From a virus, in the IMG/VR virus record IMGVR_UViG_3300036861_000806, positions 26,955 through 90,954 of that record: 64,000 bases of DNA; one strand, 5' to 3'. How positions within the stretch are numbered: position 1 is the stretch's first letter; every line of letters begins with the position of its first letter. The position numbers were made by a program, and so were the translations under genes. Shown one piece after another: positions 6,612 to 56,716 of this stretch. Under the pieces are notes generated by a model. It ran no database searches. It was not told the DNA's origin and worked only from the letters and a program-made list of their open reading frames with translations.

Positions 6612-6707
6612 TCAGGCATTGCGCCACCCCCGGCACGGGCAGAGCGTGCACCCGCCGCCGCTGTCGTGAACGAGTGCCGAATGGCCGCAGCGGCAGATCG
6701 GGGTCAC
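6612..6707 (-). CDS. 31-residue zinc-binding peptide gene
   Basis: A GTG start overlaps the TGA of the minor head gene (GTGA). The translation contains ICRCGHSALVHDSGGG then CTLCPC, giving a CxCGH-x4-H-x5-C-x2-C-x-C arrangement that recurs in tiny phage zinc proteins. The ligand spacing and tight coupling argue that it is real despite its size. Function unknown. Confidence 0.6.
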   Translation of the reverse strand: MTPICRCGHSALVHDSGGGCTLCPCRGWRNA

Positions 6708-16367: not shown

Positions 16368-16556
16368 TCACAGGTCATCCTCTCGGCCCATTGACTGGGC
16401 GGCCTTCACCAACACCGCCTTGAATTCGATCAGCGAGGAGTTCACATGCCCATATTCCGAATTCTGATTCGCAAGCTGCGCGGTCCGCCGCTGAATCCGC
16501 ATCAAGTCGCGGTAGGACTTGCGGACGAGCGTGAAGTCGTCATCACCGGGGGCCAT
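16368..16556 (-). CDS. Small hypothetical protein upstream of terS
   Basis: 62 residues, ATG overlapping the nucleotidyltransferase stop by 14 bases. Reads MAPGDDDFTLVRKSYRDLMR, then a Gln/Asn-rich helix and SLIEFKAVLVKAAQS. All helical, no motif recognised. Its position just ahead of terS suggests a packaging or head role, but that is inference. Confidence 0.6.
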   Translation of the reverse strand: MAPGDDDFTLVRKSYRDLMRIQRRTAQLANQNSEYGHVNSSLIEFKAVLVKAAQSMGREDDL

Positions 16557-17571
16557 GGAGTACCTCGTCACGATAGACATTGTAGATCAGGTCATCGGCG
16601 AAGGCGCGATCGGGCTCGGCCCTGAGATCGGAGCTCGCGCTGCTGGCGTAGAGGCGCGCCAAGCCCTGCTCAATCATCGTGTAGACGTCGTGTCGTTCGC
16701 ACTGCCCCGTCTTGATCTGCACGAGTAGCGCCCGATCCGGACGCGGAAACGTAATCCATCCGGTGTCGAGGACCTCAACCGCTTCCTCGTTCACCCGAAC
16801 CGCATGAGAGAGCGCCTTCCAGTCGACGCCGCCGGCTAGATGAGCCTTCTTCGCGCGCTCGCCGTACTCGGCTAGAACCTTGCCGTACGTCTCGCGGGCG
16901 TACTTCACCGTCGCGCCGAGCGGCAACTTGCGACCGCAGACATGCAGATGCGTGACCGTCGTGCCGTTGACCCCAGGCAGGTCGATCAGTTCGATGAGCT
17001 GCGACTGCTCCAGCGATAGCAGGCTCTCGCAGTCGACGACCAGCGCGCCGATAGCGACTGCGTGCTCAGAGAGTCGATCGCTCACCGGCAGGGCATTCAG
17101 GAGATCGACGACACGCCGAACGGCGTCCATCCGAGAGCCCTTGATCCCATATCGCGCTGCCTGCTTCCGGGCATACCCCACGAAGGCGTTGACGTTGCGA
17201 GACAGGAGCCGATCGCGGCCGTCGAGAATCTGCTGCATGACGCGCTGGCCGAGCGCCGTTGGGCACTCAGCCCGTTTGTTGCCGAACGCGAACAGCACGT
17301 CCAACGCCCACGTCTGACCATCCATGAGATCGTGGAGGAAGCGATCCAGGCTGAATTGCTCCACGTCCACGTCGTCCTGGCTGTTCCGCTCAAACGTGGC
17401 CTTCTTGCGGCTGGTGACGATTGCCTTGTCGTAGGAGCCGAGGACGATCTCCCGAGCCGTGGGCACGTAGATGCGCTTGATGTCCAGGTCAGAGTCGGGC
17501 GTGTCGGTGCCGTACAGATGGGAACCAAACTTCACTTCCAGCAGCACCTTGCCCGTTACGGCGCGCCCCAT
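16543..17571 (-). CDS. Predicted nucleotidyltransferase (COG3541/YcgL-like)
   Basis: 342 residues. The polymerase-beta-type signature is clear: FGSHLYGTDTPDSDLDIKR (GS...SDxD) near residue 17, with the third Asp probably in DVDVEQFSLDRFL. It belongs to the group of large predicted nucleotidyltransferases common in bacteria and big phages; the substrate is not established, and RNA or protein nucleotidyl transfer is possible. The promoter at 17579-17608 would start the message almost at the ATG. First gene of the packaging operon. Confidence 0.85.
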   Translation of the reverse strand: MGRAVTGKVLLEVKFGSHLYGTDTPDSDLDIKRIYVPTAREIVLGSYDKAIVTSRKKATFERNSQDDVDVEQFSLDRFLHDLMDGQTWALDVLFAFGNKRAECPTALGQRVMQQILDGRDRLLSRNVNAFVGYARKQAARYGIKGSRMDAVRRVVDLLNALPVSDRLSEHAVAIGALVVDCESLLSLEQSQLIELIDLPGVNGTTVTHLHVCGRKLPLGATVKYARETYGKVLAEYGERAKKAHLAGGVDWKALSHAVRVNEEAVEVLDTGWITFPRPDRALLVQIKTGQCERHDVYTMIEQGLARLYASSASSDLRAEPDRAFADDLIYNVYRDEVLHGPR

Positions 17572-21469: not shown

Positions 21470-22417
21470 TCACGGCGCCGCCTCATGCCGCAATTCCGCT
21501 ACATCCTCATATCCCAACCGATAGGCCGAGGCCCGGAAGTCCATCGGCGGGGCTGATGGCCGTCCTGCGGCGGCATCCCGCCCTCCGATGACGAACGCGT
21601 CGATGAGTGCCGTGCTGCGGCGCCGGTTGCCAGATCGGCCATGGCGCGTGGGCCAGAAGATCCGGCGGGCCCGCACGATCGCCGGGTGTGGGTAGGCCCG
21701 CACATAGGCGGCGAGGACCTCGCGCCAGCCGAACTGTCGTCGGTCGGACAGCGCGGCGTATGTTCGGCAGACCCGCTCATAGTCGGCCGCAGTGTCAACC
21801 GACAGTTTGATCGCTGAGCGGTCGGCGCCATCGGGACACCTCACGTTCACGATGTCGAGGGCGTGCTCCACCATCCACGTTGTCACATGCTCGCGTGCGC
21901 CATTGCCGGCCGCCGCGGCAGCGGCGAGGAGCGTACGGCGGTCAAAAGTCTCGACATCATTGCCATCATACCAGCTCGGCGGGTGGACGTTCGACGCGTA
22001 GGCGGTCGCCCACACGCCGCGTCGGCGTCTCTCGCGAAACACCCGCAGCACTTCGCCGGCCACGAGCGGGTCCAGCAGCGGGCAATCGGCCGTGAGCCGG
22101 ACGATCACATCGGCGCCAATCGTCTCGGCAGCGATGACAAACCGGCCGAGCACATCCCGCTCCGACCCGCGGGCGACGCGTGCGCCAGCCGCACGGGCGA
22201 GATGAGCGATGCGATCATCCTCGGGCCGGTCGCTCGTGGCGACGCAGACTATATCAATGCCGGGGATTGCTTGAGCACGGTTGATGACGTGGGCGAGGAT
22301 CGTTTGGGGCGCGCCGCCTTTGCCGCAGGCCGCTGGTGTACGCGGCAGGAGGCGGAGGACCTTGCCGGGAAGGCGTGTCGAGCCGGTGCGGGCTTGGATG
22401 ATGGCGGCGGTGGTCAC
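21470..22417 (-). CDS. SpsF-like cytidylyltransferase (CMP-nonulosonate synthetase type)
   Basis: 315 residues from GTG 22417, which overlaps the preceding TGA. TTAAIIQARTGSTRLPGKVL is the nucleotide-binding opening of the SpsF/COG1861 family. DIVCVATSDRPEDDRIAHLA, DVLGRFVIAAETIGADVIVR and LTADCPLLDP carry the conserved Asp that binds the metal and sugar. The family activates sugar acids with CTP. The C-terminal ~60 residues are phage-like extra sequence. Last gene of the nonulosonate operon; it would make the CMP-activated donor. Confidence 0.87.
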   Translation of the reverse strand: MTTAAIIQARTGSTRLPGKVLRLLPRTPAACGKGGAPQTILAHVINRAQAIPGIDIVCVATSDRPEDDRIAHLARAAGARVARGSERDVLGRFVIAAETIGADVIVRLTADCPLLDPLVAGEVLRVFRERRRRGVWATAYASNVHPPSWYDGNDVETFDRRTLLAAAAAAGNGAREHVTTWMVEHALDIVNVRCPDGADRSAIKLSVDTAADYERVCRTYAALSDRRQFGWREVLAAYVRAYPHPAIVRARRIFWPTRHGRSGNRRRSTALIDAFVIGGRDAAAGRPSAPPMDFRASAYRLGYEDVAELRHEAAP

Positions 22418-22590
22418 TTTCGTCGCGCCTTCATGTAGCCACGCATGTAGCAATTCCGAGAACAATGACGGAGTTTCATGTTGCTCGATTTCGAGATGGT
22501 GAACTGCTTCCCGCAGCTCGAACAAAAACGCACGATCGGAAGACAACGGCAGTACGGGCAGGTATGGCGGCGGTCGCCGGGGGCGATCAT
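22414..22590 (-). CDS. Small zinc-ribbon protein
   Basis: 58 residues, start overlapping the upstream stop by TGATG. CPYCRC, CSSCGKQF and HCSRNCY give three Cys pairs, enough for one or two zinc sites, with a basic tail. It lies between the FemAB-like and SpsF-like genes. The fold resembles zinc ribbons of HNH-associated proteins. Function unknown. Confidence 0.65.
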   Translation of the reverse strand: MIAPGDRRHTCPYCRCLPIVRFCSSCGKQFTISKSSNMKLRHCSRNCYMRGYMKARRK

Positions 22591-23219: not shown

Positions 23220-23521
23220 CCATCCGTCCTCGTCGGAGGCTCCGGTTCGCGGTCGAATCGAACGTGCGCTTGGAGATCTCCAGCGAGAGAGCCGGCCCGC
23301 CGCAGTCGCGCTTCTTCTTCTGCCACGGTCGTCTCGTCTGGGAGCAGCTCGCTCTGCACATAGAACCGCAGGGTGCCGCGATACTTGACCACCTCGTCAA
23401 CGAGCCGATAGAGCTTCGCGCGGTCGGCTGGAACGTACGCGTAGTCGAGTTCGCGTAGCCCCTTCGTCAGCGCGAAGACAGCGTCATCCATCCACTCGTG
23501 CCAGTCACAGTGATCGGTCAT
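23216..23521 (-). CDS. Small hypothetical protein in the sugar operon
   Basis: 101 residues, overlapping both neighbours by ATGA-type junctions. MTDHCDWHEWMDDAVFALTK then a helix-rich, acidic middle and a Pro-rich tail. No catalytic motif or membrane span. It may be an accessory phage gene unrelated to sugar synthesis. Confidence 0.6.
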   Translation of the reverse strand: MTDHCDWHEWMDDAVFALTKGLRELDYAYVPADRAKLYRLVDEVVKYRGTLRFYVQSELLPDETTVAEEEARLRRAGSLAGDLQAHVRFDREPEPPTRTDG

Positions 23522-24348
23522 GCTCCCACCCCCACCCGGTACCGCAGGAACGGCTCCTCCGCCGGTGCGGATCCCAGCGTCGAATCGCCCAGCATCATCT
23601 CAGCTTCCCGGATCAGTCGCACGTACTCCCGCGCCTCGTCGGGTGTGCGCGCGACGGCGTAGTCCGCGTTGTTGGGAGACGTGTCCTCCAAACGAACGTG
23701 GAATTCCACTACACGCGCACCGGCGGCGACCGCGTAGGCGCCAGCACGAGGATTGCGGGAGTGGTCGGAGAAGCCCTGGCGAGGCTGGTGGCCATCATAC
23801 CCGGTATGTAGCGCGGCAAGCCCGAGCTGGTCATCCGGACACGGGTACGCGCTGCGGCAGTGCAGGATGGTGATATCGGGAGCACGCTGGGGATCGTGAT
23901 TGTAAACCATGTTTCGATATGCATCCCTTGACCACCCTAGACTCGCGCCCATCCCGGCACTGATGATCAGCGGCTTCTCAGGCCAGCAGCCATGCAGCGC
24001 GACGAAGGGGACGTCGGTCGCCTCGAAGGACGAGATCTTGAACCGTGAGACGTGCTCCGCGATGGTGGGGACATCCTCGGGGAGATAGACCGTGCAGAGG
24101 AACTCCAGCCCTTGAGCGCGTGCATGAGCCGCGAGCTTCGGTAGCCACTCGCGCGGGAACGCGAGCAGGCGGTAGGCGTCGAGGTACTCGGGGGCGCGGC
24201 GACGTTCGGCGAGGCGCTCGGGGGAGGAGCACCACTGAAACTTACAGGCGTCGGCGTGGATCTCGGCGGCTAATTCGATCAGCCGGTACGCCTTATCGAG
24301 GTCGCCGTCGTGGGTGGCGGCGGCCTCACAGACTACAAACGTCGTCAT
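23518..24348 (-). CDS. NeuB-like nonulosonic acid synthase, lacking the SAF domain
   Basis: 276 residues. TTFVVCEAAATHDGDLDKAY, DACKFQWCSSPERL, FKISSFEATDVPFVALHG, PLIISAGMGA, ITILHCRSAYPCPDDQLGLA and GFSDHSRNPRAGAYAVAAGA follow the NeuB TIM-barrel in order, including the metal-binding His. Enzymes of this family condense phosphoenolpyruvate with a hexosamine derivative to form a nine-carbon sugar acid. The usual C-terminal antifreeze-like SAF domain (~60 residues) is absent, which is unusual for bacterial NeuB; activity is therefore likely but not assured. Confidence 0.85.
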   Translation of the reverse strand: MTTFVVCEAAATHDGDLDKAYRLIELAAEIHADACKFQWCSSPERLAERRRAPEYLDAYRLLAFPREWLPKLAAHARAQGLEFLCTVYLPEDVPTIAEHVSRFKISSFEATDVPFVALHGCWPEKPLIISAGMGASLGWSRDAYRNMVYNHDPQRAPDITILHCRSAYPCPDDQLGLAALHTGYDGHQPRQGFSDHSRNPRAGAYAVAAGARVVEFHVRLEDTSPNNADYAVARTPDEAREYVRLIREAEMMLGDSTLGSAPAEEPFLRYRVGVGA

Positions 24349-24980: not shown

Positions 24981-25150
24981 CGCCGTTCAAGTGCCAGTTC
25001 ACACGTTTCGTCTATCCAATCGGCCGCCTCGCGCATGATGGCTGTATCAACATAGGGCGCGCCGAACTGACCGTAACGCTGACCGCTGACCTCGCGATCC
25101 ACGAATGTGGCAAGCGCTCGAAGCTCGCGTGCCAGATCTCGAGACATCAT
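24977..25150 (-). CDS. Small helical protein
   Basis: 57 residues from ATG 25150, chosen because GGAGG lies eight bases upstream, inside the end of the aminotransferase gene. SRDLARELRALATFVDREVS and AIMREAADWIDETCELALER are two helices. Pattern typical of small phage proteins; function unknown. Confidence 0.6.
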   Translation of the reverse strand: MMSRDLARELRALATFVDREVSGQRYGQFGAPYVDTAIMREAADWIDETCELALERR

Positions 25151-26541
25151 CGGGTAATCCTCCATGCGGGCGCCGGGTCGATCGGGTCTCCCTCGACCCG
25201 CGCGCGGACGTCGCCGGCCGCGATCGCCTCGATGACGATCGCCATCGCCTCGTCGCAGGCCCCCAGCAGCGCGTCGACGTCGGCGTCCGTATGCGCGAGC
25301 ATGAGGTTCATCCCCTCTGGGTGGATCAAGTGGCCGCGCCTCACCGTCTCCTGGAAGAACAGCGACGCGCGATGCCGGTTCGGAGGAGTGGTGGAGGCCT
25401 GCGGACTCGAACCGCTTCTGTATGGCCTACCCGCGTCGGCAGACTGATGACCACCATTTGCCTTCTGACTGCGCGGGACTCCCTCGGCCCCCATTTCCTC
25501 GTCCCACCGGATCACCGGATGCGGTGGCTGTCCGACCGCGCGCGTCGGCGCTCCGTGCTTCTCCGCGAGCGCGTTGTACCCCTCGATGATCCGCGCACCG
25601 AGCCACGCCATGTGCTCGCAGACCCCGCCTTGCTGGTAACGCGCGAGCGTCGCATCGGCGGCGGCGAGTCCGATCAGGTCGCCGCCGAACGTGCCAGAGG
25701 CCAAGCGCGCCCAGCGCATCGGCTCGGCGCGGCCAACCAGCGCGGCCAGCGCGTAGCCATTGGCGAGGGCTTTCCCGAACGTCGCCAAGTCGGGCGTTAC
25801 GCCGCAAAGGGCTTGGTAGCCACCCGCGTGCCAGCGGAAGCCCGTGACCATCTCGTCGAAGATCAGGAGGGCACCCCAGCGATCGCAGCGCTCGCGGAGG
25901 CCCTCAAGGAAGCCCGGCGAGGGTGGTTCGATCAGCGTGGGCTCGACAATGACGGCGGCGATATCCTGAGTGCTGAAGTTCCCGAAGATGTCATCCGCGC
26001 CGTCCCGGTCGAGAGCGGCGAGGTCGTTGTACTCGAACGATACTGACAACTCCGTCATCGCCTCCGGCACCCCCGGGTGCTCCGGCCGTGTCACCGCATA
26101 CCAGCTGTGCCAACCGTGATATCCGCAACAGAGAACCACGTCGCGCCCCGTGTGCGCGCGGGCGACGCGGATAGCTGCCTCGGTCGCCTCGGACCCCGTC
26201 TTGAAGAAACGCACGGATTCGGCGCAGGGGATCAGGTCAACGAGCCGCTGAGCGACGCGCTCCTCTAGTTCGACGTTTGGGAGCGAGAAGATCGGGCCGT
26301 CCATGACCTGCTTGATTACAGCCCCTTCGACCGCCTCGTCACGGTAGCCGAGGCTAACGGCGCCGAGACCGCAGATCCAATCAACGAAGCCGCGGCCCGG
26401 TCCAGTCAACCTCCACTCGAACACCCTCGCGCCAGAACCTCGATACAAAGACCTCGGGTACACGCCGGGGAATCTGCCGCGCATTTTACTCAGCGTCATC
26501 GCGCCGCCGGGGATCAGCTCGACCGCCGCCTCCGTCGTCAT
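25147..26541 (-). CDS. Class III PLP aminotransferase (GSA-aminomutase-like) with an in-frame insertion
   Basis: 464 residues. VEWRLTGPGRGFVDWICGLG-like opening, ESVRFFKTGSEATEAAIRVA, YHGWH, LIFDEMVTGFR (PLP-contact Asp) and LATFGKALANGYALAALVGR with the Schiff-base Lys place it among glutamate-1-semialdehyde aminomutase-like transaminases, often found in sugar-acid clusters. About 40 residues between RWDE and RHRASLFFQ (DNA ~25375-25495) look inserted and contain tRNA-like sequence. In the nonulosonate operon it probably aminates the keto-sugar made by the PseB-like enzyme. Confidence 0.87.
   Translation of the reverse strand: MTTEAAVELIPGGAMTLSKMRGRFPGVYPRSLYRGSGARVFEWRLTGPGRGFVDWICGLGAVSLGYRDEAVEGAVIKQVMDGPIFSLPNVELEERVAQRLVDLIPCAESVRFFKTGSEATEAAIRVARAHTGRDVVLCCGYHGWHSWYAVTRPEHPGVPEAMTELSVSFEYNDLAALDRDGADDIFGNFSTQDIAAVIVEPTLIEPPSPGFLEGLRERCDRWGALLIFDEMVTGFRWHAGGYQALCGVTPDLATFGKALANGYALAALVGRAEPMRWARLASGTFGGDLIGLAAADATLARYQQGGVCEHMAWLGARIIEGYNALAEKHGAPTRAVGQPPHPVIRWDEEMGAEGVPRSQKANGGHQSADAGRPYRSGSSPQASTTPPNRHRASLFFQETVRRGHLIHPEGMNLMLAHTDADVDALLGACDEAMAIVIEAIAAGDVRARVEGDPIDPAPAWRITR
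25389..25415 (-). other. tRNA 3'-end-like sequence inside the aminotransferase gene
   Basis: On the minus strand GCGGTTCGAGTCCGC (25415-25401) is a T-arm with loop TTCGAGT, followed by a GGCCTCC stretch and then CCACCA (25394-25389), like the end of a tRNA or tmRNA gene with encoded CCA. I could not fold a convincing D-arm or anticodon arm upstream, so no complete tRNA is claimed. It lies in the in-frame insertion. Confidence 0.45.
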
Positions 26542-29300: not shown

Positions 29301-29329
29301 TTGACTCATCCATCATTAGGCAGTACACT
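29301..29329 (+). promoter_or_regulatory. Transposase promoter TTGACT-N17-TACACT
   Basis: -35 at 29301-29306 and -10 at 29324-29329 with a 17-base spacer. The ATG at 29337 follows seven bases later, giving a leaderless message as in element 1. Confidence 0.65.
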
Positions 29330-29336
29330 CAGCGGC

Positions 29337-30317
29337 ATGGAAGAGACGACGGTCCGCTCCCCGAAGACGCTGATTGAGGCGATCCGCTACTACTCGGACC
29401 CCGACGTGTGCCTGACCACGATGGTCGAGGCCCGTTGGCCGAAGGGCGTGACGTGCCCGACGTGCGGCGCTGCCAACCCGCGTTTCATCTCCACTCGGCG
29501 CATATGGGAGTGCCGCGATAAGCACCCGCGTCGACAGTTCTCGGCCAAGGTCGGGACGATCTTCGAGGATTCGCCCCTGCCGCTGGAGAAGTGGTTTCCC
29601 GCCGTCTGGCTGATCGCCAACGCCAAGAACGGGGTCAGCTCGCACGAGCTCGGCCGCGCCCTTGGCGTCACGCAGAAGACCGCGTGGTTCATGCTCCATA
29701 GGATTCGGCTGGCGATGAAGGCCGGAACGTTCCTCAAGCTCTCCGGCAAGGTCGAGGCGGATGAGACGTTCATCGGCCCGGACCCGAAGAAGATGCACCG
29801 CGACCGCCTGGAGGCCCGCCGCAAGGCCAAGGGCCTGGAAGACGGCTACGTGTCCAAGACCATCGTGGCGGGCCTGCTGGAGCGTCCCACGAAAGGCACC
29901 AAGGCCAAGAGCCGCGTCCATGCCGAAGTGGTGGACACGACGCGGGCCTGGGATCTGATCCCGCAAATCAAGGACAACGTCACGCCCGGCAGCGAGTTGA
30001 TTACCGACATGAACCGCTCGTATTGGGCCGCCCGCGACGAGTACATTCACAGCGTGATCGACCACACGCAGATGTACGTGAAGGGCCACGTCCACACCAA
30101 CGGGATCGAAAACTTCTGGAGCCTGCTCAAGCGGATGATCCACGGCACCTACGTCGGCGTCGCGTCGTTCCATCTCGGCGCCTACGTGGACGAGGAAGTC
30201 TTCCGCTTCAACGAGCGCGGCGACGATGACGGCGGGCGCTTCGGCACGGTGCTCCGTCAGGTCACGGGCCGGCGGATCGACTACGCGACGCTCACCGGCA
30301 AGATCGCGATGGCGTAG
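29337..30317 (+). CDS. IS1595-family transposase (complete)
   Basis: 326 residues from ATG 29337. Zinc ribbon CPTCGAANPRFISTRRIWEC, the helical region VTQKTAWFMLHRIRLAMKAG, then a DDE/DDN-like core: GKVEADETFIGPDPK (first Asp), GSELITDMNRSYWAAR (second Asp) and VHTNGIENFWSLLKRMIHGT (Asn/Glu and K). ISXO2-like transposase domain. All catalytic parts are present, so this copy is probably active and could mobilise element 1, whose ends are similar. Confidence 0.94.
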   Translation: MEETTVRSPKTLIEAIRYYSDPDVCLTTMVEARWPKGVTCPTCGAANPRFISTRRIWECRDKHPRRQFSAKVGTIFEDSPLPLEKWFPAVWLIANAKNGVSSHELGRALGVTQKTAWFMLHRIRLAMKAGTFLKLSGKVEADETFIGPDPKKMHRDRLEARRKAKGLEDGYVSKTIVAGLLERPTKGTKAKSRVHAEVVDTTRAWDLIPQIKDNVTPGSELITDMNRSYWAARDEYIHSVIDHTQMYVKGHVHTNGIENFWSLLKRMIHGTYVGVASFHLGAYVDEEVFRFNERGDDDGGRFGTVLRQVTGRRIDYATLTGKIAMA

Positions 30318-30521: not shown

Positions 30522-31256
30522 TCACGCATTCTGTAGTATTGGGCGTCCCTCGGCATCGTAGACAAGATTGAATCGCGCGACTACTTCCGCGATGCCGTCG
30601 GCACGTGCAGAGATCGTCACGACATAATTTATTGCCTGCACAACCAACGGTGCAAAGAGTCCCTCTATTTGCAGTCGTAGTGGTCGAGTATCCCAGGCGC
30701 AGATGATCAGATTTACATGGTCCTCGTTGCCGCCATGCTGAACGGAATGCCGAATTATCCACTCTTGTCCTGGACCGCTTCGCCGAAGTGCTTGCTCGCC
30801 CATTCTGTCTGAATCAGGATCAAGACGTACGGATACCAGTGGGTTATGAATTGCCGGGAGTCCTGGATTGCGCACACTAATTCTCAGGACCCGCCGATTG
30901 CCCGAGAGATCGTCCAAACACCACTGACATGCCGGATTATGCGTTACCACCAATCGCGGCTCGCGTTCCTGTTCTAGAACACTAATCCGCTGTAAGTGAG
31001 AATCAGCGGCAAACCGTTCTTTGCTGATTGCCCGATGCGCCCCGAGATAAATACTGGCCATGATTAGCGCAACCGCGAGATAAGGGCTATACGGATTCAG
31101 GACCTCAAAATATCTGGCTACAAATGTTCCGGCTTTAGGACCAAGAATGCCTTCTCCCAGCACCCACACGATAATACCGGCACACGTGAATGCGATTGAT
31201 CCAGCGTTAAACATTTCTTTGAGAACCAGACGCGCTGTCTCTCGGTGTTTGATCAT
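30522..31256 (-). CDS. Membrane-anchored cargo protein of IS1595 element 2
   Basis: 244 residues. Two N-terminal transmembrane spans (AGSIAFTCAGIIVWVLGEGI; PYLAVALIMASIYLGAH) are followed by a short coiled linker and a soluble beta-sandwich-like domain (LRISVRNPGLPAIHNPLVSV; LRLQIEGLFAPLVVQAINYV). Convergent with the transposase and wholly inside the inverted repeats. AT content seems higher than in nearby phage genes. No known function; possible exclusion or membrane-stress role is speculation. Confidence 0.7.
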   Translation of the reverse strand: MIKHRETARLVLKEMFNAGSIAFTCAGIIVWVLGEGILGPKAGTFVARYFEVLNPYSPYLAVALIMASIYLGAHRAISKERFAADSHLQRISVLEQEREPRLVVTHNPACQWCLDDLSGNRRVLRISVRNPGLPAIHNPLVSVRLDPDSDRMGEQALRRSGPGQEWIIRHSVQHGGNEDHVNLIICAWDTRPLRLQIEGLFAPLVVQAINYVVTISARADGIAEVVARFNLVYDAEGRPILQNA

Positions 31257-32141
31257 GGCTCCGGCAACCTCCTACTTGGCCGAGTACAGTAGCACTGTTA
31301 CTGAGCCAAGTATATCGTTGCCCTTCGTCTGCGCAACATGCGGCGAGCCGCGGCACTATTTCGTCCAGCAGAGAAAGCTCTTCGAGTGCGCGGCCGGCCA
31401 CCAAACGAGCGTGACGGCCGGGACCGTCCTGCACCGCACGCGGATGCCGCTCACGACATGGTTTTGGGCGGCCTATCTCATCACCACGCACAGGCCCGGC
31501 CAGTCGGCCCTCCAGCTCGCGCGCCAGCTCGACTTGCGGTACGAGACGGCATTCCAGATCGGGCAGAAGCTCCGGGCCGGCATGGTCAACCCCGAGCGCG
31601 GTCGTTTGTCGGGCATTGTCGAGGTCGACGACTCCTACATCGGCGGCCGGCAGGCCGGTCCTGGGGGTCGTGGAGCCCGCGGCAAGGCGATGGTGATTGC
31701 CGCCGTCGAGCGCCGCGACACGCGGGCCGGGCGCCTCCGCTTGCGCCAGATCCCCAGCGCGACCACGACCGACGTGCTGCGCTTCATCGAGGATTCGTGC
31801 GAGCCTGGAACGCGCGTCGTCACCGATGGGCTCGGCGCCTACACCGCCCTCCGCGACACGGGCTACAAGCACGACGTGGTGACCGGTGAGACGCAAGTCG
31901 AGATCGCGGAAGGACTGCCCCACGTTCACCGGGTGTTCGGCAACCTGAAAGCCTGGCTGATCGGCACGCATCACGGCGTCTCCCCGAAGCACTTGCAGGG
32001 GTATCTCAATGAATTCACGTTCCGATTCAATCGCCGCCGCATGCCCATGGCCGCCTTTCAGACCGCGCTCGGTCTCGGGGCGAGCGTGCCCGGCCCGACG
32101 TACCGGCAGGTCTACCGCGTTGGGCGAATCGGGGAATGGCG

Positions 32142-32450
32142 TCACCCCAACCCCTCGCGCACGCCTGAGTTATTCGGATAAGCATGTTCCGCGATGGTGG
32201 TCCAGTAAGCCTCTAGCTCCCGGCGAATCGCGACCGCATGGGGTGCTTTCCACAGATCGTCACCTGTGACGATATCGCGGACGATGATGGTGGACGGGCC
32301 GCCCGCTTTTATAATGGCCTTCCCCTCGGCTATTGCCTTCGTCAAGGAGCGAGACGCCGCGAACTTCTGCGTAACCCTCCCATCTAAGCTTTCAATCGCA
32401 CAGACCTGGTAGCGGGTTGTTCGCAATCGACGCCTCCCTCTGTCAGTCAT
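32142..32450 (-). CDS. Small hypothetical protein
   Basis: 102 residues starting MTDRGRRRLRTTRYQVCAIE, overlapping the PseB-like stop region. FAASRSLTKAIAEGKAIIKA and a VRDIVTGDDLWKAPHAVAIR segment suggest a small alpha-beta domain. Its last 40 bases overlap the 3' end of the split transposase gene on the other strand. Confidence 0.6.
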   Translation of the reverse strand: MTDRGRRRLRTTRYQVCAIESLDGRVTQKFAASRSLTKAIAEGKAIIKAGGPSTIIVRDIVTGDDLWKAPHAVAIRRELEAYWTTIAEHAYPNNSGVREGLG

Positions 32451-33432
32451 CGGGGTCCGTCTCCCTGAGCATGTCCACCAGCTCGTCGACCTCAATCCAG
32501 CGCACGGGCTGATCCGACGCGTAGATCTTGCCGAACAGCTCGTAGCCCACTGGCCGCGGGAACGACTCGCGCCACGAATGATAGGACGGCAGAATGATCA
32601 TCGCGTCGTCGCGGGCCCACGTCCGGGGTGCCTCTTCCGGCGTGACCAGCATCTCGTCCAGTTTCTCGCCGCCCCCTCGTGAGCCGATGACAACGATCTC
32701 GGGGGCCACAGCGCCATACATCCTGGCGGTGGCATGCGCCAGATCGCCGACCGTCGCTGCGGGGAGACGCGGGACGAAGATCTCCGCCCCCTCCATCGCC
32801 GCGAGGGCGGAGAGGCAGAACTCGACGGCTTGGCGTTGCGTGATCACGAAGCGTGACATGGCCGGGTCCGTCACGGTAAGCGGCGCGCCACGCCGGAGCT
32901 GATCAAGCCAGATCTCGGTGACCGACCCCGTGGACCCGAGCACGTTGCCCCAGCGCGTGCAGCTAATCGTCAGACCCCGCGGGGCTGTAATCGCGTTCGA
33001 TGCGACCGCCTCATGCTCCATCTGGGCCTTACTCGCGCCATAGCTCGTGCTGGGCGCGGCGGCCTTGTCCGAGCTGATCATCAGCACGCGTTTCACGCCA
33101 GCGGCGAGGGCGGCCGAGATCACGTTGGCGGAACCGGCCACGTTTGTCTTCCGCACTTCACCGGGGTTGTCGGCGACGGCGTCGATGCGTTTTAACGCGG
33201 CGCAGTGCGCCACCGTGTCGCATCCCCACATCGCCTCCTCGAGACGCTCCCGGTCACGCACGTCGCCAAGGAAGAAATGCGCGTTGGCGTATGCGCGAAA
33301 TCGCGACGCGATGATCGCCTGACGCGATTCGCTCCGGCTATACAGCACGACGCGGTCGGCGCCCCCCACCAGCAACGCCCGGGCGAGCGCCCGGCCGAAG
33401 AAGCCTGTCCCGCCGGTTATGAGGACTCTCAT
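32443..33432 (-). CDS. PseB-like UDP-GlcNAc 4,6-dehydratase (SDR)
   Basis: 329 residues, SD AAAGGAGGCGAG. MRVLITGGTGFFGRALARAL is the NAD(P)-binding GxxGxxG. FLGDVRDRERL, VKRVLMISSDKAAAPSTSYG and ASKAQMEHE give the catalytic SDK and YxxxK of the FlaA1/PseB/CapD group, followed by CTRWGNVLGSTGSV. Relatives dehydrate and epimerise UDP-GlcNAc as the first step of pseudaminic or related sugar synthesis. It is the first gene of the minus-strand sugar operon, with promoter at 33492-33521. Confidence 0.88.
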   Translation of the reverse strand: MRVLITGGTGFFGRALARALLVGGADRVVLYSRSESRQAIIASRFRAYANAHFFLGDVRDRERLEEAMWGCDTVAHCAALKRIDAVADNPGEVRKTNVAGSANVISAALAAGVKRVLMISSDKAAAPSTSYGASKAQMEHEAVASNAITAPRGLTISCTRWGNVLGSTGSVTEIWLDQLRRGAPLTVTDPAMSRFVITQRQAVEFCLSALAAMEGAEIFVPRLPAATVGDLAHATARMYGAVAPEIVVIGSRGGGEKLDEMLVTPEEAPRTWARDDAMIILPSYHSWRESFPRPVGYELFGKIYASDQPVRWIEVDELVDMLRETDPDD

Positions 33433-49590: not shown

Positions 49591-50910
49591 TCATGTGAGC
49601 ACCGACGGCGCCGTCCCCATCCCATTCCGCCACCGGAGCGCCGCCTCGACCGTGCGGCAGTCGGGATGCACGCCCTCGATGTGGAAGACGCCGATAGAGG
49701 GGTTCCGCATCTTGAGATAGGGCCGGACGCGCCCGTCGCCCAGATCGAGCGAGAGAAGCTCATACATGTCGCCTTGCCGATGAAGCACCTTGGCGCCCAG
49801 GGCATCGCACACCCGCTCGATCCCGATCTTCCGCACACGCTCACGCCGGATTTCCGCGTTCGTGTCCTTCAAGACGTCGCGGGGATCAAGCCGCTCGGCC
49901 GGCGTTTCTACCAACTCGCGCGGGACGGTCACCCCGTGCAATCGATAGATCCCCCACGCATCCGCGAACTGTAGGGCCATGCCGGTGTCGTTGTGGAGCT
50001 GGCCGCGTTCATCGCGTGTGAGCACTTTCGGGCGGTCGGAGACCATCACGAACTTCCGGTGTGGCCACCACCAACAGGCCGAGCGCGCGGTGTTCTCGTA
50101 GGCGATGGCACGGAGCCACATATCGCCCGGCAGATCCAAATGGCAGACCTCGCGGAAGAAACTGGCCATCACGGGGTCGGCGTACCAATACCCGCCACCG
50201 ATCCAGAACTGACCGCCAATGTAATGTGTATAGGCGCTGCGCACGGCTCTGTCCACGGCGCTGCGCACGGCGCTGTCCACGGCGCTGCCCACGGCGCTGT
50301 CCACGGCGCTGTCCACGGCGCTGCGCACGGCGCTGTACACGGCGCTGTCCACGGCGCTGTGCACGGCGCTGTCCACGGCGCTGCCCACGGCGCTGTCCAC
50401 GGCGCTGTCCACGGCGCTGCGCACGGCTCTGTCCACGGCGCTGCGCACGGCTCTGTACACGGCGCTGTCCACGGCGCTGTGCACGGCGCTGTCCACGGCG
50501 CTGCCCACGGCGCTGCGCACGGCTCTGTCCACGGCGCTGCGCACGGCGCTGTCCACGGCGCTGCCCACGGCGCTGTCCACGGCGCTGTCCACGGCGCTGT
50601 CCACGGCGCTGCGCACGGCTCTGTCCACGGCGCTGCGGCTGTCGCCGCGCGCCGGCATCCAGCCAGTGAGGAGCAACGACGCACAGGGCGCCGCGAAGGC
50701 CAGCACGAGCGGTGACGGCACACGCACGATCCGCTCCGGCTTCGGCAGATTCGCAAAGGCGTAGCATTCGAGCGCCGCCCGCTCGAACGTTGGCCAGTCG
50801 GCCTCCCCGGTCTGCAGCCCGATCGCGGTCCAGCGCTCGACCCATTCTCCGAAGCGGGCGCGTTCCGCCTCGGAGAGTGACGTCAGGCGCTTACGGGGTC
50901 GTGCCACCAT
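49591..50910 (-). CDS. DUF6745-like protein with 34 tetrapeptide repeats
   Basis: 439 residues. Residues 1-91 are a helical N-domain; 92-227 are 34 tandem x-x-A-V/Y units (mostly DSAV, RSAV, GSAV, DRAV); 228-439 form the conserved domain: GGQFWIGGGYWYADPVMASF, WWWPHRKFVMVSDRP, LHNDTGMALQFADAWGIYRL, RERVRKIGIERVCDALGAKV and RTVEAALRWRNG. This C-domain resembles DUF6745 proteins of phages and actinobacteria. The repeat probably forms a long amphipathic helix and is likely length-variable. Partner gene 50910-51218 is its usual neighbour. Confidence 0.8.
   Translation of the reverse strand: MVARPRKRLTSLSEAERARFGEWVERWTAIGLQTGEADWPTFERAALECYAFANLPKPERIVRVPSPLVLAFAAPCASLLLTGWMPARGDSRSAVDRAVRSAVDSAVDSAVDSAVGSAVDSAVRSAVDRAVRSAVGSAVDSAVHSAVDSAVYRAVRSAVDRAVRSAVDSAVDSAVGSAVDSAVHSAVDSAVYSAVRSAVDSAVDSAVGSAVDSAVRSAVDRAVRSAYTHYIGGQFWIGGGYWYADPVMASFFREVCHLDLPGDMWLRAIAYENTARSACWWWPHRKFVMVSDRPKVLTRDERGQLHNDTGMALQFADAWGIYRLHGVTVPRELVETPAERLDPRDVLKDTNAEIRRERVRKIGIERVCDALGAKVLHRQGDMYELLSLDLGDGRVRPYLKMRNPSIGVFHIEGVHPDCRTVEAALRWRNGMGTAPSVLT
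50230..50637 (-). repeat. In-frame 12-bp tandem repeat, 34 units
   Basis: Coding repeat of the DUF6745-like gene. The unit is close to GACAGCGCCGTG on the minus strand, with variants at the first codon (Asp, Arg, Gly, His, Tyr) and occasional Arg for Ser at the second. Because it is 12 bases, all three frames on both strands are open here. Confidence 0.92.
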
Positions 50911-54112: not shown

Positions 54113-54733
54113 CTACCTCGCCACGAAGTCACTGATGAGCGCCGGGGTTGCGGTATCGAAACCGCAGACGTCCAGCAATCGATCAGCTATGAGCCGACAC
54201 AGCGACACGAAGTAGCCCTCGCGCAGATCCGACTTCATCTTGTTGACGTCTCTATGAACCCACTGCACGTTGCCAGGCACGTACCCGAAAGAGTTGTCAC
54301 GACGATCCAGCGAGGCGTCGATTCCGTGAGTCAGCGGCAGACCTGTGTAGGCACATCGCCCGTCTTGAGCCCCCCATGTCTGCCATAGGGTTTCGGGCGT
54401 GACCTCAAACAAGAGGCCGCGCTTCGCCGCATCGCTCTCGATCTGCGTGAGATACACGCCCGTCAGATCGCGATAGCCTCTCCAGCGCGGGTTGTTTTCC
54501 CGAACCACGGCACACCGCAGACAACGTCTGCTACGCCGCAGGTGCGACAAGGTTGACGGCCCGCAGATATGCCCGCAAGTGGAGCAACACCACCGCCACA
54601 GATGGTGCCCATGGTCGTTTCGGCCGACGTACTCGTGAAGCGCGCCGGGCCCGATGGCCTCGCCGATCTCATGACCGCCTTGAGATAACTCGGCGACACG
54701 ATAGCGCCGACCCCGATTCCATGGAACCATCAC
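54113..54733 (-). CDS. HNH endonuclease carrying a Ro60-like C-terminal tail
   Basis: 206 residues, GTG start inside the Ro60 stop region. Zinc ribbon CCSTCGHICGPSTLSHLRRS with CLRC, then an HNH-type core TWGAQDGRCAYTGLPLTHGI, DASLDRRDNSFGYVPGNVQW and VHRDVNKMKSDL. The last residues DVCGFDTATPALISDFVAR match the end of the upstream Ro60 protein (DVVGMDTTTPSLIADF) at 12 of 16 positions. This suggests the nuclease gene inserted near the 3' end of the Ro60 gene, leaving or copying the old C-terminal codons at its own end. Probably a homing endonuclease. Confidence 0.85.
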   Translation of the reverse strand: MMVPWNRGRRYRVAELSQGGHEIGEAIGPGALHEYVGRNDHGHHLWRWCCSTCGHICGPSTLSHLRRSRRCLRCAVVRENNPRWRGYRDLTGVYLTQIESDAAKRGLLFEVTPETLWQTWGAQDGRCAYTGLPLTHGIDASLDRRDNSFGYVPGNVQWVHRDVNKMKSDLREGYFVSLCRLIADRLLDVCGFDTATPALISDFVAR

Positions 54734-56376
54734 ATCCTCGACCCGATAAAATCAGCAATGAGCGACGGCGTAGTCGTGTCCATACCGACTACGTCGAGCA
54801 TGCCCGCATCGTTCGGGTCAGCGATCGTGAATCCGTTGGACACCATCGCGACGACGGCGAGCTTGGCGGAGATACCCGTCTCGCGGCGGTACTTCGTGAG
54901 CGCCTGTGACGGGTGCATCGCGCCAGCCCATGTCTCCGAGTCCGTCAGGACGACGAATCCGTCAGCGGCGAGCTTCTGCTCCAGCGCCCACAGCATCGGC
55001 AGCGAGCAGTCGGTGCCGCCGAACGGGAGGCTCGAGACGACGCGCACCGCATCGGCGAGCCGCTGTTTGGGGCTGATGGGTAGCGGCCGGAACTCCGTTG
55101 CGAATCCCATGATGACGTGATTCGGCTCACGGGCCGCCGTGACGAGGGCGAGGGCGGCGCTCGCGTCTCGCGGTGTCAGGCCCGGTACGCCCGCGATGGC
55201 CCCGCCGCCCATGGAGCCGGACACGTCCAGCGCCAAGACGTAGCGCTTGCCCGTGATCGGCACATTCTCGAACGCGGTATAGAACGCGGCGTCAAGGGCG
55301 TCGATGATCTGGCTGACAGGCGCCCAGGTCAGCGAGCCGCGCTCGCCGTGGCCCTGCGCATAGACGCGCTGGGCGGACAGCAGCGCGATCGGGTGCAGTC
55401 GCGAGCGGCGAATCCGCTCCTCGTTGCCGAGCTCGCGGACCACATGCGCGACCGCCTCGCTCATCGGAGCCAGCAGGCCCACCGCCGTCATCTTGGCGAG
55501 ACTGCGAACCATTGCCGTCATCGGCATTCGCTCCAGCAGCGCCGCCCACACGTCGGCTTGGTTCAACATCTCGGGCGGCACAACTTCGCGCGGGAGATCG
55601 TGCTCGCGGATCAGGGCGCACAGACGCTTGACATCCAGCCCGGCGGTGATCTCGTCGAGCGCGGCAACCAGGGGGTGCGGGGCGACAGGCTCGAGGAATC
55701 GCCGATAGGGCGCAAGCCGGACCCCCTTCTTGGTCCGCTGCTCTTCGGCGCGGAGATCCTTCGATCCGGTGAGCCACCGAAAGAGGGCCTGATGCTCGGC
55801 GCTCGGCGGGGTGACGTGCGCGAGCCGCAGGAGGTCAGCATGGGTCCAGCCGTCGCGCTGACGGTACTTGATGGCCTGATAGACGACGTGATCGATCTCG
55901 GCTGAATACCACCCCTGCACGGCGCGGCGCAGTCCCCGACCCCATCCCCGGAATGCCTGCACCGCTTGCGCGAAATGGAACAGATGCGTCCCGATCCGGC
56001 AGACTTTGGGCATCGCCTCGAATGCCACCGCCTTCGTCGCTGAATCGCCGAGCGCCGCCGCCAGGGCGAGGGCGAAGATGGCGGGGTCGTTCTTCGGGGC
56101 CCGACCTGCCGTGGAGACCTCCACGATACGGCGCACCGCGCGCGGGCCATCGGTCTGAATGCAGCGCGTGACGGCTGCGGCGTTCTCCTTCGTCAGCTTC
56201 TTCTCTGAGGCGTAGTACGTCGGGCCCTCTGATCCGAGAATCAGAAAGCGGTCGAGCCGTGTCCAATCATCCACCGCCCACGTAAAACCACCCGCGCTGT
56301 TCGGAACCTGCGCGGTGCCGGGAATCGGCTCGCTCTGGGGCGTGGTCCGTGTCGAGACATGCTGGCTGTAGTCCAT
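54730..56376 (-). CDS. rsr: Ro60/TROVE-domain RNA-binding protein (Rsr-like)
   Basis: 548 residues from ATG 56376 (GAGGGAAACC upstream). A TROVE HEAT-repeat ring (~25-370) includes EGPTYYASEKKLTKENA, AIFALALAAALGD, HLFHFAQAVQAFRGWGRGLR and KYRQRDGWTHADLLRLAH. A von Willebrand A domain follows with the MIDAS YVLALDVSGSM (D384-x-S-x-S), GGTDCSLPMLWAL and VVLTDSETWAG. Ro60 binds misfolded RNA ends and Y RNA and can tether nucleases. A YrlA-type RNA lies just upstream on the same strand. Confidence 0.95.
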   Translation of the reverse strand: MDYSQHVSTRTTPQSEPIPGTAQVPNSAGGFTWAVDDWTRLDRFLILGSEGPTYYASEKKLTKENAAAVTRCIQTDGPRAVRRIVEVSTAGRAPKNDPAIFALALAAALGDSATKAVAFEAMPKVCRIGTHLFHFAQAVQAFRGWGRGLRRAVQGWYSAEIDHVVYQAIKYRQRDGWTHADLLRLAHVTPPSAEHQALFRWLTGSKDLRAEEQRTKKGVRLAPYRRFLEPVAPHPLVAALDEITAGLDVKRLCALIREHDLPREVVPPEMLNQADVWAALLERMPMTAMVRSLAKMTAVGLLAPMSEAVAHVVRELGNEERIRRSRLHPIALLSAQRVYAQGHGERGSLTWAPVSQIIDALDAAFYTAFENVPITGKRYVLALDVSGSMGGGAIAGVPGLTPRDASAALALVTAAREPNHVIMGFATEFRPLPISPKQRLADAVRVVSSLPFGGTDCSLPMLWALEQKLAADGFVVLTDSETWAGAMHPSQALTKYRRETGISAKLAVVAMVSNGFTIADPNDAGMLDVVGMDTTTPSLIADFIGSRM

Positions 56377-56399
56377 GGTTTCCCTCAGTGTGTTCGGCG

Positions 56400-56570
56400 C
56401 GGATGAAGAATTGCCCACCGGCGAAGCGCTTGCGCGCCCTTTGCTCTACCAGACTGAGCTACGTGGCTATCCGTGGATAGCCGCGACCGGAATCGAACCG
56501 GTGCCACAAGAGAACCGGCGAACGCCGACCCGAGCCGAGTTACAGAACACGCGACGGATGAAGGATCGCC
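56400..56570 (-). ncRNA. YrlA-type Y RNA with circularly permuted tRNA-like module
   Basis: Minus strand, read 5'-3': T-arm ACCGGTTCGATTCCGGT (56502-56486, perfect 5-bp stem, loop TTCGATT); a 10-bp acceptor-like helix (56485-56476 with 56471-56462, one mismatch) closed by tetraloop CACG; TA; D-arm GCTC-AGTCTGGTA-GAGC (56459-56443) with the conserved GG. T-arm, acceptor and D-arm are thus in permuted order, as known for bacterial YrlA RNAs that mimic tRNA. Flanks CTCTTG and CAAAGGG can pair as the next stem. Ends are approximate. It lies 67 bases ahead of the Ro60 start. Confidence 0.85.
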
Positions 56571-56716
56571 GACCGGATGACTTAGCAGGTAACCGGCCAG
56601 CAGCGACCCGTCGCAGGAGAAAAGAAGCGGACGAATGAACGCCGACGGGTGCTTTTCAAGGTAACCCGCCGACTCCGGCCCGCCCCTCTGATTGACGTTG
56701 GCACCCAAAGATTCCA
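56571..56716. other. Non-coding region with imperfect ~72-bp tandem copies
   Basis: Minus strand carries two related stretches beginning GGTTACCT (56666 and 56594), each followed by a C-A-Y-C-C-G then GTCGGCG and T-T-C-x-T-C-C-G. GTCGGCG occurs four times in 56520-56675. No gene. It may be part of the Y RNA transcript, a second decayed copy, or the operon leader. Confidence 0.4.

What the first reader, a model, noticed from the sequence alone, without database searches (positions are those of the whole stretch)
54730..56570. Phage Ro60 protein with its own YrlA-type Y RNA whose tRNA-like module is circularly permuted
The Ro60 gene has full TROVE and vWA domains and an intact MIDAS. Within the 200 bases upstream on the same strand a T-arm, a 10-bp acceptor-like stem closed by CACG, and a D-arm occur in the order expected for a permuted tRNA mimic, the known YrlA design. 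A complete Ro60-Y RNA RNP in a phage suggests control of host or phage RNA decay, or tethering of a nuclease. Established knowledge: bacterial Ro60 and Y RNA work with PNPase or other RNases.
Basis: partly seen in the sequence, partly recalled or inferred. Interest (0 to 1): 0.85.

Follow-up and report, generated by a model that had tools for sequence, protein, structure and literature searches.

The report
Phage Ro60 with three Y RNAs
This phage carries the gene for the RNA-binding protein Ro60 and, just in front of it, three small RNAs built to bind it, one of which imitates a tRNA; the combination is already known from other phages and bacteria, but the comparison showed that many relatives carry the same tRNA imitation opened at its other end.

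Summary
A complete Ro60 gene (54730-56376, minus strand; TROVE and Ro60-vWA domains, MIDAS residues present) follows a YrlA-type Y RNA at 56396-56536 whose tRNA-like module runs T-arm, acceptor hairpin, D-arm. Rfam YrlA matches it full length (43.5 bits, below the curated 69). All five YrlA helices covary across 36 sequences. The contig is a tailed phage. Ro60 with Y RNAs in phages is already described (Chen et al. 2014) and 342 phage records hold Ro60, so this is a new member of a known kind. The likely job, not shown, is tethering a host tRNA-binding factor such as PNPase to the Ro60 ring. The more surprising result lies in the relatives: about 20 phage and 30 bacterial Ro60 loci carry the opposite circular permutation, a normal-order tRNA with the Y hairpin inserted between D-arm and T-arm, and three or four bacterial loci carry a Y RNA whose loop copies 23S rRNA helix 69. 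I found neither in the literature I could read.

The parts
54730..56376 (-). Ro60 (Rsr) gene, 548 aa: TROVE ring + vWA domain with complete MIDAS
   Evidence: (phrog_850)
56396..56536 (-). YrlA-type Y RNA (tRNA-like module in permuted order)
56526..56536 (-). 5' strand of the Ro60-binding Y stem (GGCTCGGGTCG)
   Evidence: alignment; covariation of Y stem 1
56396..56405 (-). 3' strand of the Y stem (CATCCGCGCC)
56486..56502 (-). T-arm (ACCGG TTCGATT CCGGT)
   Evidence: sequence
56462..56485 (-). acceptor-like hairpin CGCGGCTATC-CACG-GATAGCCACG, closed by a loop so that there is no free CCA end
   Evidence: sequence
56443..56459 (-). D-arm (GCTC AGTCTGGTA GAGC)
   Evidence: sequence
56424..56439 (-). 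extra GNRA hairpin GGGCGC-GCAA-GCGCTT after the D-arm, seen in 7 of 66 aligned elements (window included)
56551..56614 (-). stem-loop Y RNA 'b' (GCGACGGGTCG..GGTTACC..TTCATCCGTCGC)
56624..56686 (-). stem-loop Y RNA 'a' (GGCGGGCCGGAG..GGTTACC..TTCATTCGTCCGC), also matched by nematode stem-bulge RNA RF01656 (31.1 bits, below cut-off 38)
54113..54733 (-). context: HNH/endonuclease VII-like ORF that overlaps the Ro60 stop; probably an independent homing-type nuclease

Best explanation
The phage encodes its own Ro60 ribonucleoprotein: one Ro60 ring and three Y RNAs made just upstream on the same strand. Shown here: the protein family, three Y RNA structures under covariation, and the permuted tRNA-like module of one of them. 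Inferred: each Y stem (GGGYCG / TTCAYYCG strands) binds the outside of the Ro60 ring; the two stem-loop Y RNAs gate or stabilise it, and the YrlA RNA holds out a tRNA-like body to which a host factor docks. By analogy with Deinococcus and Salmonella the factor is PNPase or another tRNA-binding enzyme, so that 3' ends of structured or damaged RNA threaded through the ring are degraded or processed during infection. No PNPase, RtcB or RNA_ligase gene matched in the 90,954-base record (which may be a fragment), so the partner enzyme would come from the host.
For: Ro60 domains and MIDAS. Leave-one-out Y model finds exactly three sites in 64 kb, all three adjacent and upstream of Ro60 on its strand. 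YrlA helices covary: 94.2% of cells paired, 27 of 32 pairs with changes on both sides, 0 of 500 shuffles as good. Lower stem of the stem-loop Y RNAs covaries. All 189 Y-motif + T-arm candidates of related loci lie on the Ro60 strand. Known chemistry of YrlA: binds Rsr by its basal stem, PNPase by the tRNA-like domain, is modified by DusA and TruB (PMC8394870). No PNPase, RtcB or PF09414 RNA ligase match in the record.
Against: No expression, binding or phenotype data for this phage. The Rfam YrlA score is below the curated cut-off. Tethering of PNPase has been shown only in a few bacteria, and no phage Ro60 has been tested in anything I could read. No sigma-70-type promoter match upstream.
Confidence: 0.6

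Rival explanations
1. Decoy or RNA-repair accessory: the closed tRNA mimic occupies host anticodon nucleases or tRNA-sensing defence factors, and Ro60 holds cut tRNA for repair; no decay machine is formed.
For: The Salmonella authors propose YrlA as a competitive inhibitor of the anticodon nuclease (PMC7790460). The same phage has an RlaP-family nucleotidyltransferase of RNA-repair pathways (window 16543-17571, PF10127 41.1 bits). Diverse anticodon-like loops in relatives would suit decoys.
Against: This YrlA has no anticodon-like loop and no RtcB or PF09414 RNA ligase match was found in the record. RlaP relatives have a phage family of their own (phrog_388), so its presence is weak evidence.
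Confidence: 0.25
2. Passenger: a Ro60-Y locus picked up from a bacterium with little use to the phage.
For: Phage and bacterial Ro60 proteins are intermixed in the tree (at least 18 changes).
Against: Reading frame, MIDAS and all three RNA structures are intact, and the nearest protein found is only 62% identical, so the locus has been kept over long divergence; Ro60 recurs in hundreds of phages.
Confidence: 0.12
3. Not a Y RNA: remnants of two neighbouring tRNA genes or a chance match.
For: YrlA models give weak matches to tRNA pairs (25.6-29.5 bits; 13 of 14 control genomes ring at E<=1).
Against: No tRNA in the window; 59.4 bits with a model that never saw it; the Y stem pairs across the whole module and covaries; two further Y RNAs beside it.
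Confidence: 0.03

Closest known systems
YrlA RNA of Salmonella (Rfam RF02553, PDB 6CU1)
   Same: Y stem formed by the two ends; T-arm, looped acceptor, D-arm in circularly permuted order; encoded beside Ro60/Rsr
   Different: 43.5 bits against a gathering score of 69; 10-pair acceptor hairpin with CACG loop; extra GNRA hairpin after the D-arm; phage-borne, with no RtcB match in the record
Y RNAs beside Ro60 in mycobacteriophages and other phages (Chen et al. 2014, cited in PMC12282133)
   Same: phage Ro60 with adjacent YrlA; the same Rfam model matches YrlA in Pinkcreek, Cashline, FuzzBuster, Sparky, Sixama
   Different: a different, uncultured phage; Ro60 at most 49% identical to phage isolates; two stem-loop Y RNAs plus one YrlA
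Deinococcus radiodurans Rsr-Y RNA-PNPase (RYPER)
   Same: Ro60 ring with MIDAS, stem-loop Y RNA as presumed tether and gate
   Different: PNPase binding not tested; any partner would be the host's
Listeria phage CKA15 Rsr-like protein with abundant noncoding RNAs (PMC12282133)
   Same: phage Ro60-like gene next to highly transcribed RNAs in the same direction
   Different: there the RNAs are seen by sequencing but not assigned; here they are assigned by structure but not seen

Membership tests
Ro60 / Rsr | TROVE domain and Ro60-type vWA domain over curated cut-offs | tested here: met
Ro60 / Rsr | complete MIDAS (DxSxS, T, D) | tested here: met
Ro60 / Rsr | binds Y RNA and misfolded RNA | not testable with these tools
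   needs protein
YrlA-type Y RNA (structural class) | tRNA-like module in permuted order T-arm, acceptor, D-arm | tested here: met
YrlA-type Y RNA (structural class) | Y stem pairing the two ends, with covariation | tested here: met
   helices 1 and 2
YrlA-type Y RNA (structural class) | encoded beside Ro60 | tested here: met
   about 20 b upstream of the Ro60 start, same strand
YrlA-type Y RNA (structural class) | binds Ro60; DusA/TruB substrate | not testable with these tools
   D-loop GG and T-loop TTCGA letters are present
Rfam RF02553 sensu stricto | gathering score 69 bits | tested here: not met
   43.5 bits; YrlA elements beside Ro60 in Mycobacterium, Gordonia and Microbacterium phages also fall short at 33-47 bits, so the cut-off fits close relatives of the seed only
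Stem-loop Y RNA (two elements) | conserved Ro60-binding lower stem with covariation | tested here: met
Nematode sbRNA RF01656 | gathering score 38 bits | tested here: not met
   31.1 bits in the window; one related phage locus passes at 40.2

The most novel reading that the evidence does not exclude
Ro60 loci use one Y-tRNA chimera in both circular permutations. Beside the known YrlA form (open at the Y stem, acceptor closed by a loop, as in this window), phages and bacteria of several phyla carry an 'isomer B': a normal-order tRNA (acceptor, D-arm, T-arm, acceptor) with the Y hairpin, itself permuted, inserted between D-arm and T-arm, giving free tRNA-like ends. The two forms have interchanged repeatedly, and other Y RNAs in such loci carry anticodon-arm-like or 23S helix-69 loops, so these loci would be a general platform that offers imitations of core host RNAs to host enzymes.
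Probability: 0.5. Interest if true: 0.8.

Novelty: new member of a known kind. Interest (0 to 1): 0.45.

Why it matters
For the window itself: another phage with a full Ro60 RNP, distant from the cultured phages that have one, and with three Y RNAs rather than one. In the wider set: if the second permutation is real, what is conserved is the joined shape (tRNA body plus Ro60 arm) and not the position of the ends, and ordinary tRNA finders report such RNAs as tRNAs with introns, so they are probably misannotated. That makes the open question of what bacterial Y RNA modules bind directly testable in sequenced strains such as Minicystis rosea, Sorangium cellulosum So0157-2 and Polyangium.

Tried and rejected
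Rfam gathering scan of the whole window: no hit, so the curated threshold alone would have missed everything. Isomer-B model on the window: only 21.9 bits, overlapping the YrlA T-arm; rejected, the window has no isomer B. L132 at 60.4 bits with that model is two tandem YrlA RNAs read in the wrong register; left out. The neighbouring HNH nuclease as the tethered enzyme: annotated neighbours of Ro60 in other phages differ, so more likely a homing nuclease. Promoter scan: no match on either strand; the single terminator-like match lies on the other strand, away from the Y RNAs. First automatic test of the GNRA hairpin placed the D-arm wrongly and was replaced. Structure prediction of Ro60 was not run: the fold is not in doubt. 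Key Y RNA papers (Chen 2014, Wang 2018, Sim 2018 and 2020) are not held, so absence of isomer B from the literature is not proven.

Full report
WHAT WAS CLAIMED.

THE PROTEIN. The minus-strand ORF 54730-56376 (ATG behind GAGGG; 548 aa) matches the Ro60 vWA domain (1.5e-61) and TROVE (1e-45) over their cut-offs and phrog_850, RNA-binding protein. DVSGS (384), T455 and D479 complete the MIDAS. The contig is a tailed phage: major head protein, maturation protease, portal, terminase, RecT and RecE-like exonuclease; the whole record is a 90,954-base IMG/VR virus contig.

THE RNA. Rfam finds nothing at curated thresholds. With permissive thresholds YrlA RF02553 matches full length at 56415-56528(-) with 43.5 bits, E 1.7e-8, below its cut-off of 69. 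YrlA elements beside Ro60 in Gordonia, Mycobacterium and Microbacterium phages also score only 33-47 bits, while a match across neighbouring tRNA genes there gives 25.6. To avoid circularity I built model R2 from 27 phage and bacterial relatives without the window. In the 64-kb window it has exactly three hits: 56396-56536 (59.4 bits, 1.7e-11), 56624-56686 (36.5 bits) and 56551-56614 (35.3 bits), all minus strand, all between Ro60 and the next upstream ORF. They fold better than shuffles (z -3.3 and -3.5).

COVARIATION. On 36 YrlA-type RNAs including the window, five helices (two in the Y arm, T, acceptor, D) pair in 94.2% of cells; 27 of 32 pairs change on both sides; the covariation score is 0.636 against 0.209 in shuffles (0 of 500 reach it) and 0.07-0.14 when slid. 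The lower stem of 13 stem-loop Y RNAs behaves likewise (0.716 against 0.282). MAFFT, not the structure, made the alignments, but most relatives were chosen because they show the T-arm, acceptor, D-arm and lower Y-stem pairs, which inflates those helices, and the compared columns were picked for pairing; the upper Y stem (helix 2) was not used in choosing the sequences and still has 8 of 8 pairs with double changes.

KNOWN OR NEW. tblastn finds Ro60 in 342 of 50,697 phage records, mostly annotated 'Ro-like RNA binding protein', at under 60% identity. Y RNAs in mycobacteriophages are credited to Chen et al. 2014 (PMC12282133); from memory that paper reports Y RNAs near Ro60 in over 250 bacterial and phage species, at least one per species tRNA-like. 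YrlA superposes on tRNA as a circular permutation (PMC11472068), binds Rsr by its stem and PNPase by its tRNA-like domain, and is modified by DusA and TruB (PMC8394870). The window is therefore a new member of a known kind. Its own traits are the long acceptor hairpin and a GNRA hairpin after the D-arm.

HOW IT PROBABLY WORKS. Inference: Ro60 ring plus Y RNAs, with the tRNA-like body recruiting a host enzyme; the record shows no PNPase, RtcB or PF09414 RNA ligase match, but an RlaP-type nucleotidyltransferase is present, which keeps an RNA-repair or decoy role open.

WHERE THE EVIDENCE LED: THE OTHER PERMUTATION. Ro60 loci from 80 viral and 80 bacterial contigs are full of Y motifs on the Ro60 strand. 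In locus L008 one element is a tRNA in normal order whose middle is a Y module in reversed order (3' half, short loop, 5' half). A scan found about 40 such elements, all on the Ro60 strand. An independent count took 189 Y-motif + T-arm candidates (189 on the Ro60 strand, 0 on the other) and asked with which D-arm's acceptor the T-arm's acceptor pairs: with the upstream one (isomer B) in 30 cases against a shuffled mean of 4.0 (maximum 10), with the downstream one (YrlA, isomer A) in 30 against 2.5 (maximum 7). On 30 aligned isomer-B elements 16 of 19 predicted pairs show double changes (the acceptor pairs were part of the selection there). Model R1 scores isomer B at 60-113 bits in about 20 phage and 30 bacterial loci, while hits of ordinary tRNA length (about 72 nt) score 48 bits or less there. 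In 12 whole bacterial genomes every R1 hit of 60 bits or more lies in the Ro60 locus that led to the genome or within about 9 kb of a second, divergent TROVE gene (three genomes); the hits under 52 bits are mostly of tRNA length. Rfam sees only 'tRNA' there and ARAGORN 'tRNA with intron'. On a Ro60 tree the two forms change at least 14 times (FastTree, many weak forks, labels incomplete). Tandem duplication with loss of the outer halves would convert one into the other; L132 shows two tandem YrlA RNAs.

LOOPS THAT LOOK LIKE OTHER RNAS. After the motif GUUAYC a hairpin with a 7-nt loop is enriched (70 against 18 expected) with U33 in 85 of 110 and A37 in 74 of 110, the signature of an anticodon loop. 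It never occurs together with the GNRA hairpin (0 of 7 against 34 of 59, p 0.004, relatedness ignored); the window has the GNRA form. Y elements in L227, L235 and L237 (and, degenerate, L250) contain the 23S rRNA helix 69-71 sequence; the 30-mer of L235 matches E. coli genomes at 100% (5,375 of 5,426 genomes, median 7 places, annotated 23S ribosomal RNA).

LIMITS. Everything is sequence-based. The main Y RNA papers could not be read, so novelty of isomer B and of the helix-69 loop is provisional.

Noticed in passing
L008:3760-3880, L145:3532-3804, L158:4759-4875, L161:2578-2702, L237:6294-6420, L256:2782-2907, L262:4876-4999, L272:4899-5150 and others: Isomer B: normal-order tRNA with a permuted Y hairpin between D-arm and T-arm; some have CCA encoded after the acceptor (L161, L145). 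All on the Ro60 strand; Rfam calls them only tRNA.
   Followed up: yes
L227:2906-2990, L235:1437-1520, L237:4740-4830, degenerate in L250 near 4560: Y element whose loop carries the 23S rRNA helix 69-71 sequence (30 nt identical to E. coli 23S in L235).
   Followed up: partly
many loci, e.g. L005:5589-5660, L134:2216-2250, L270:2840-2870: Hairpin with a 7-nt loop (U33, A37, A38; varied 'anticodons') directly after the GUUAYC motif of Y RNAs.
   Followed up: partly
L231, L236, L243, L255, L262, L264, L272, L276, L284; phages Sparky, Sixama, SparkleGoddess: Ro60-Y loci often sit inside or beside tRNA gene arrays.
   Followed up: no
G005:C11:139926-148510, G006:C22:146432-153284, G003:C1:4250798-4251997: Second, divergent TROVE gene in Polyangium and Sorangium genomes, each with its own isomer-B elements nearby.
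   Followed up: partly
window 16543-17571 (-): RlaP-family nucleotidyltransferase (RNA-repair pathway, PF10127) in the same phage.
   Followed up: partly
window 21470-22546, 23518-24348, 25147-26541, 32443-33432 (-): Sugar cassette: cytidylyltransferase, NeuB, class-III aminotransferase, Polysacc_synt_2 dehydratase; looks like a nonulosonic-acid pathway for surface decoration.
   Followed up: partly
window 29301-30317 (+) and 31147-32181 (+): Two different IS1595-type (ISXO2-like) transposase genes within the phage contig.
   Followed up: partly
window 6704-8599 (-): Mu F-like head protein interrupted by an intein-like segment (PF14890 match, below its cut-off).
   Followed up: partly
window 49591-50910 (-): DUF6745 protein with a long internal run of SAVDSAV-type repeats; the repeat opens several overlapping frames.
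   Followed up: no
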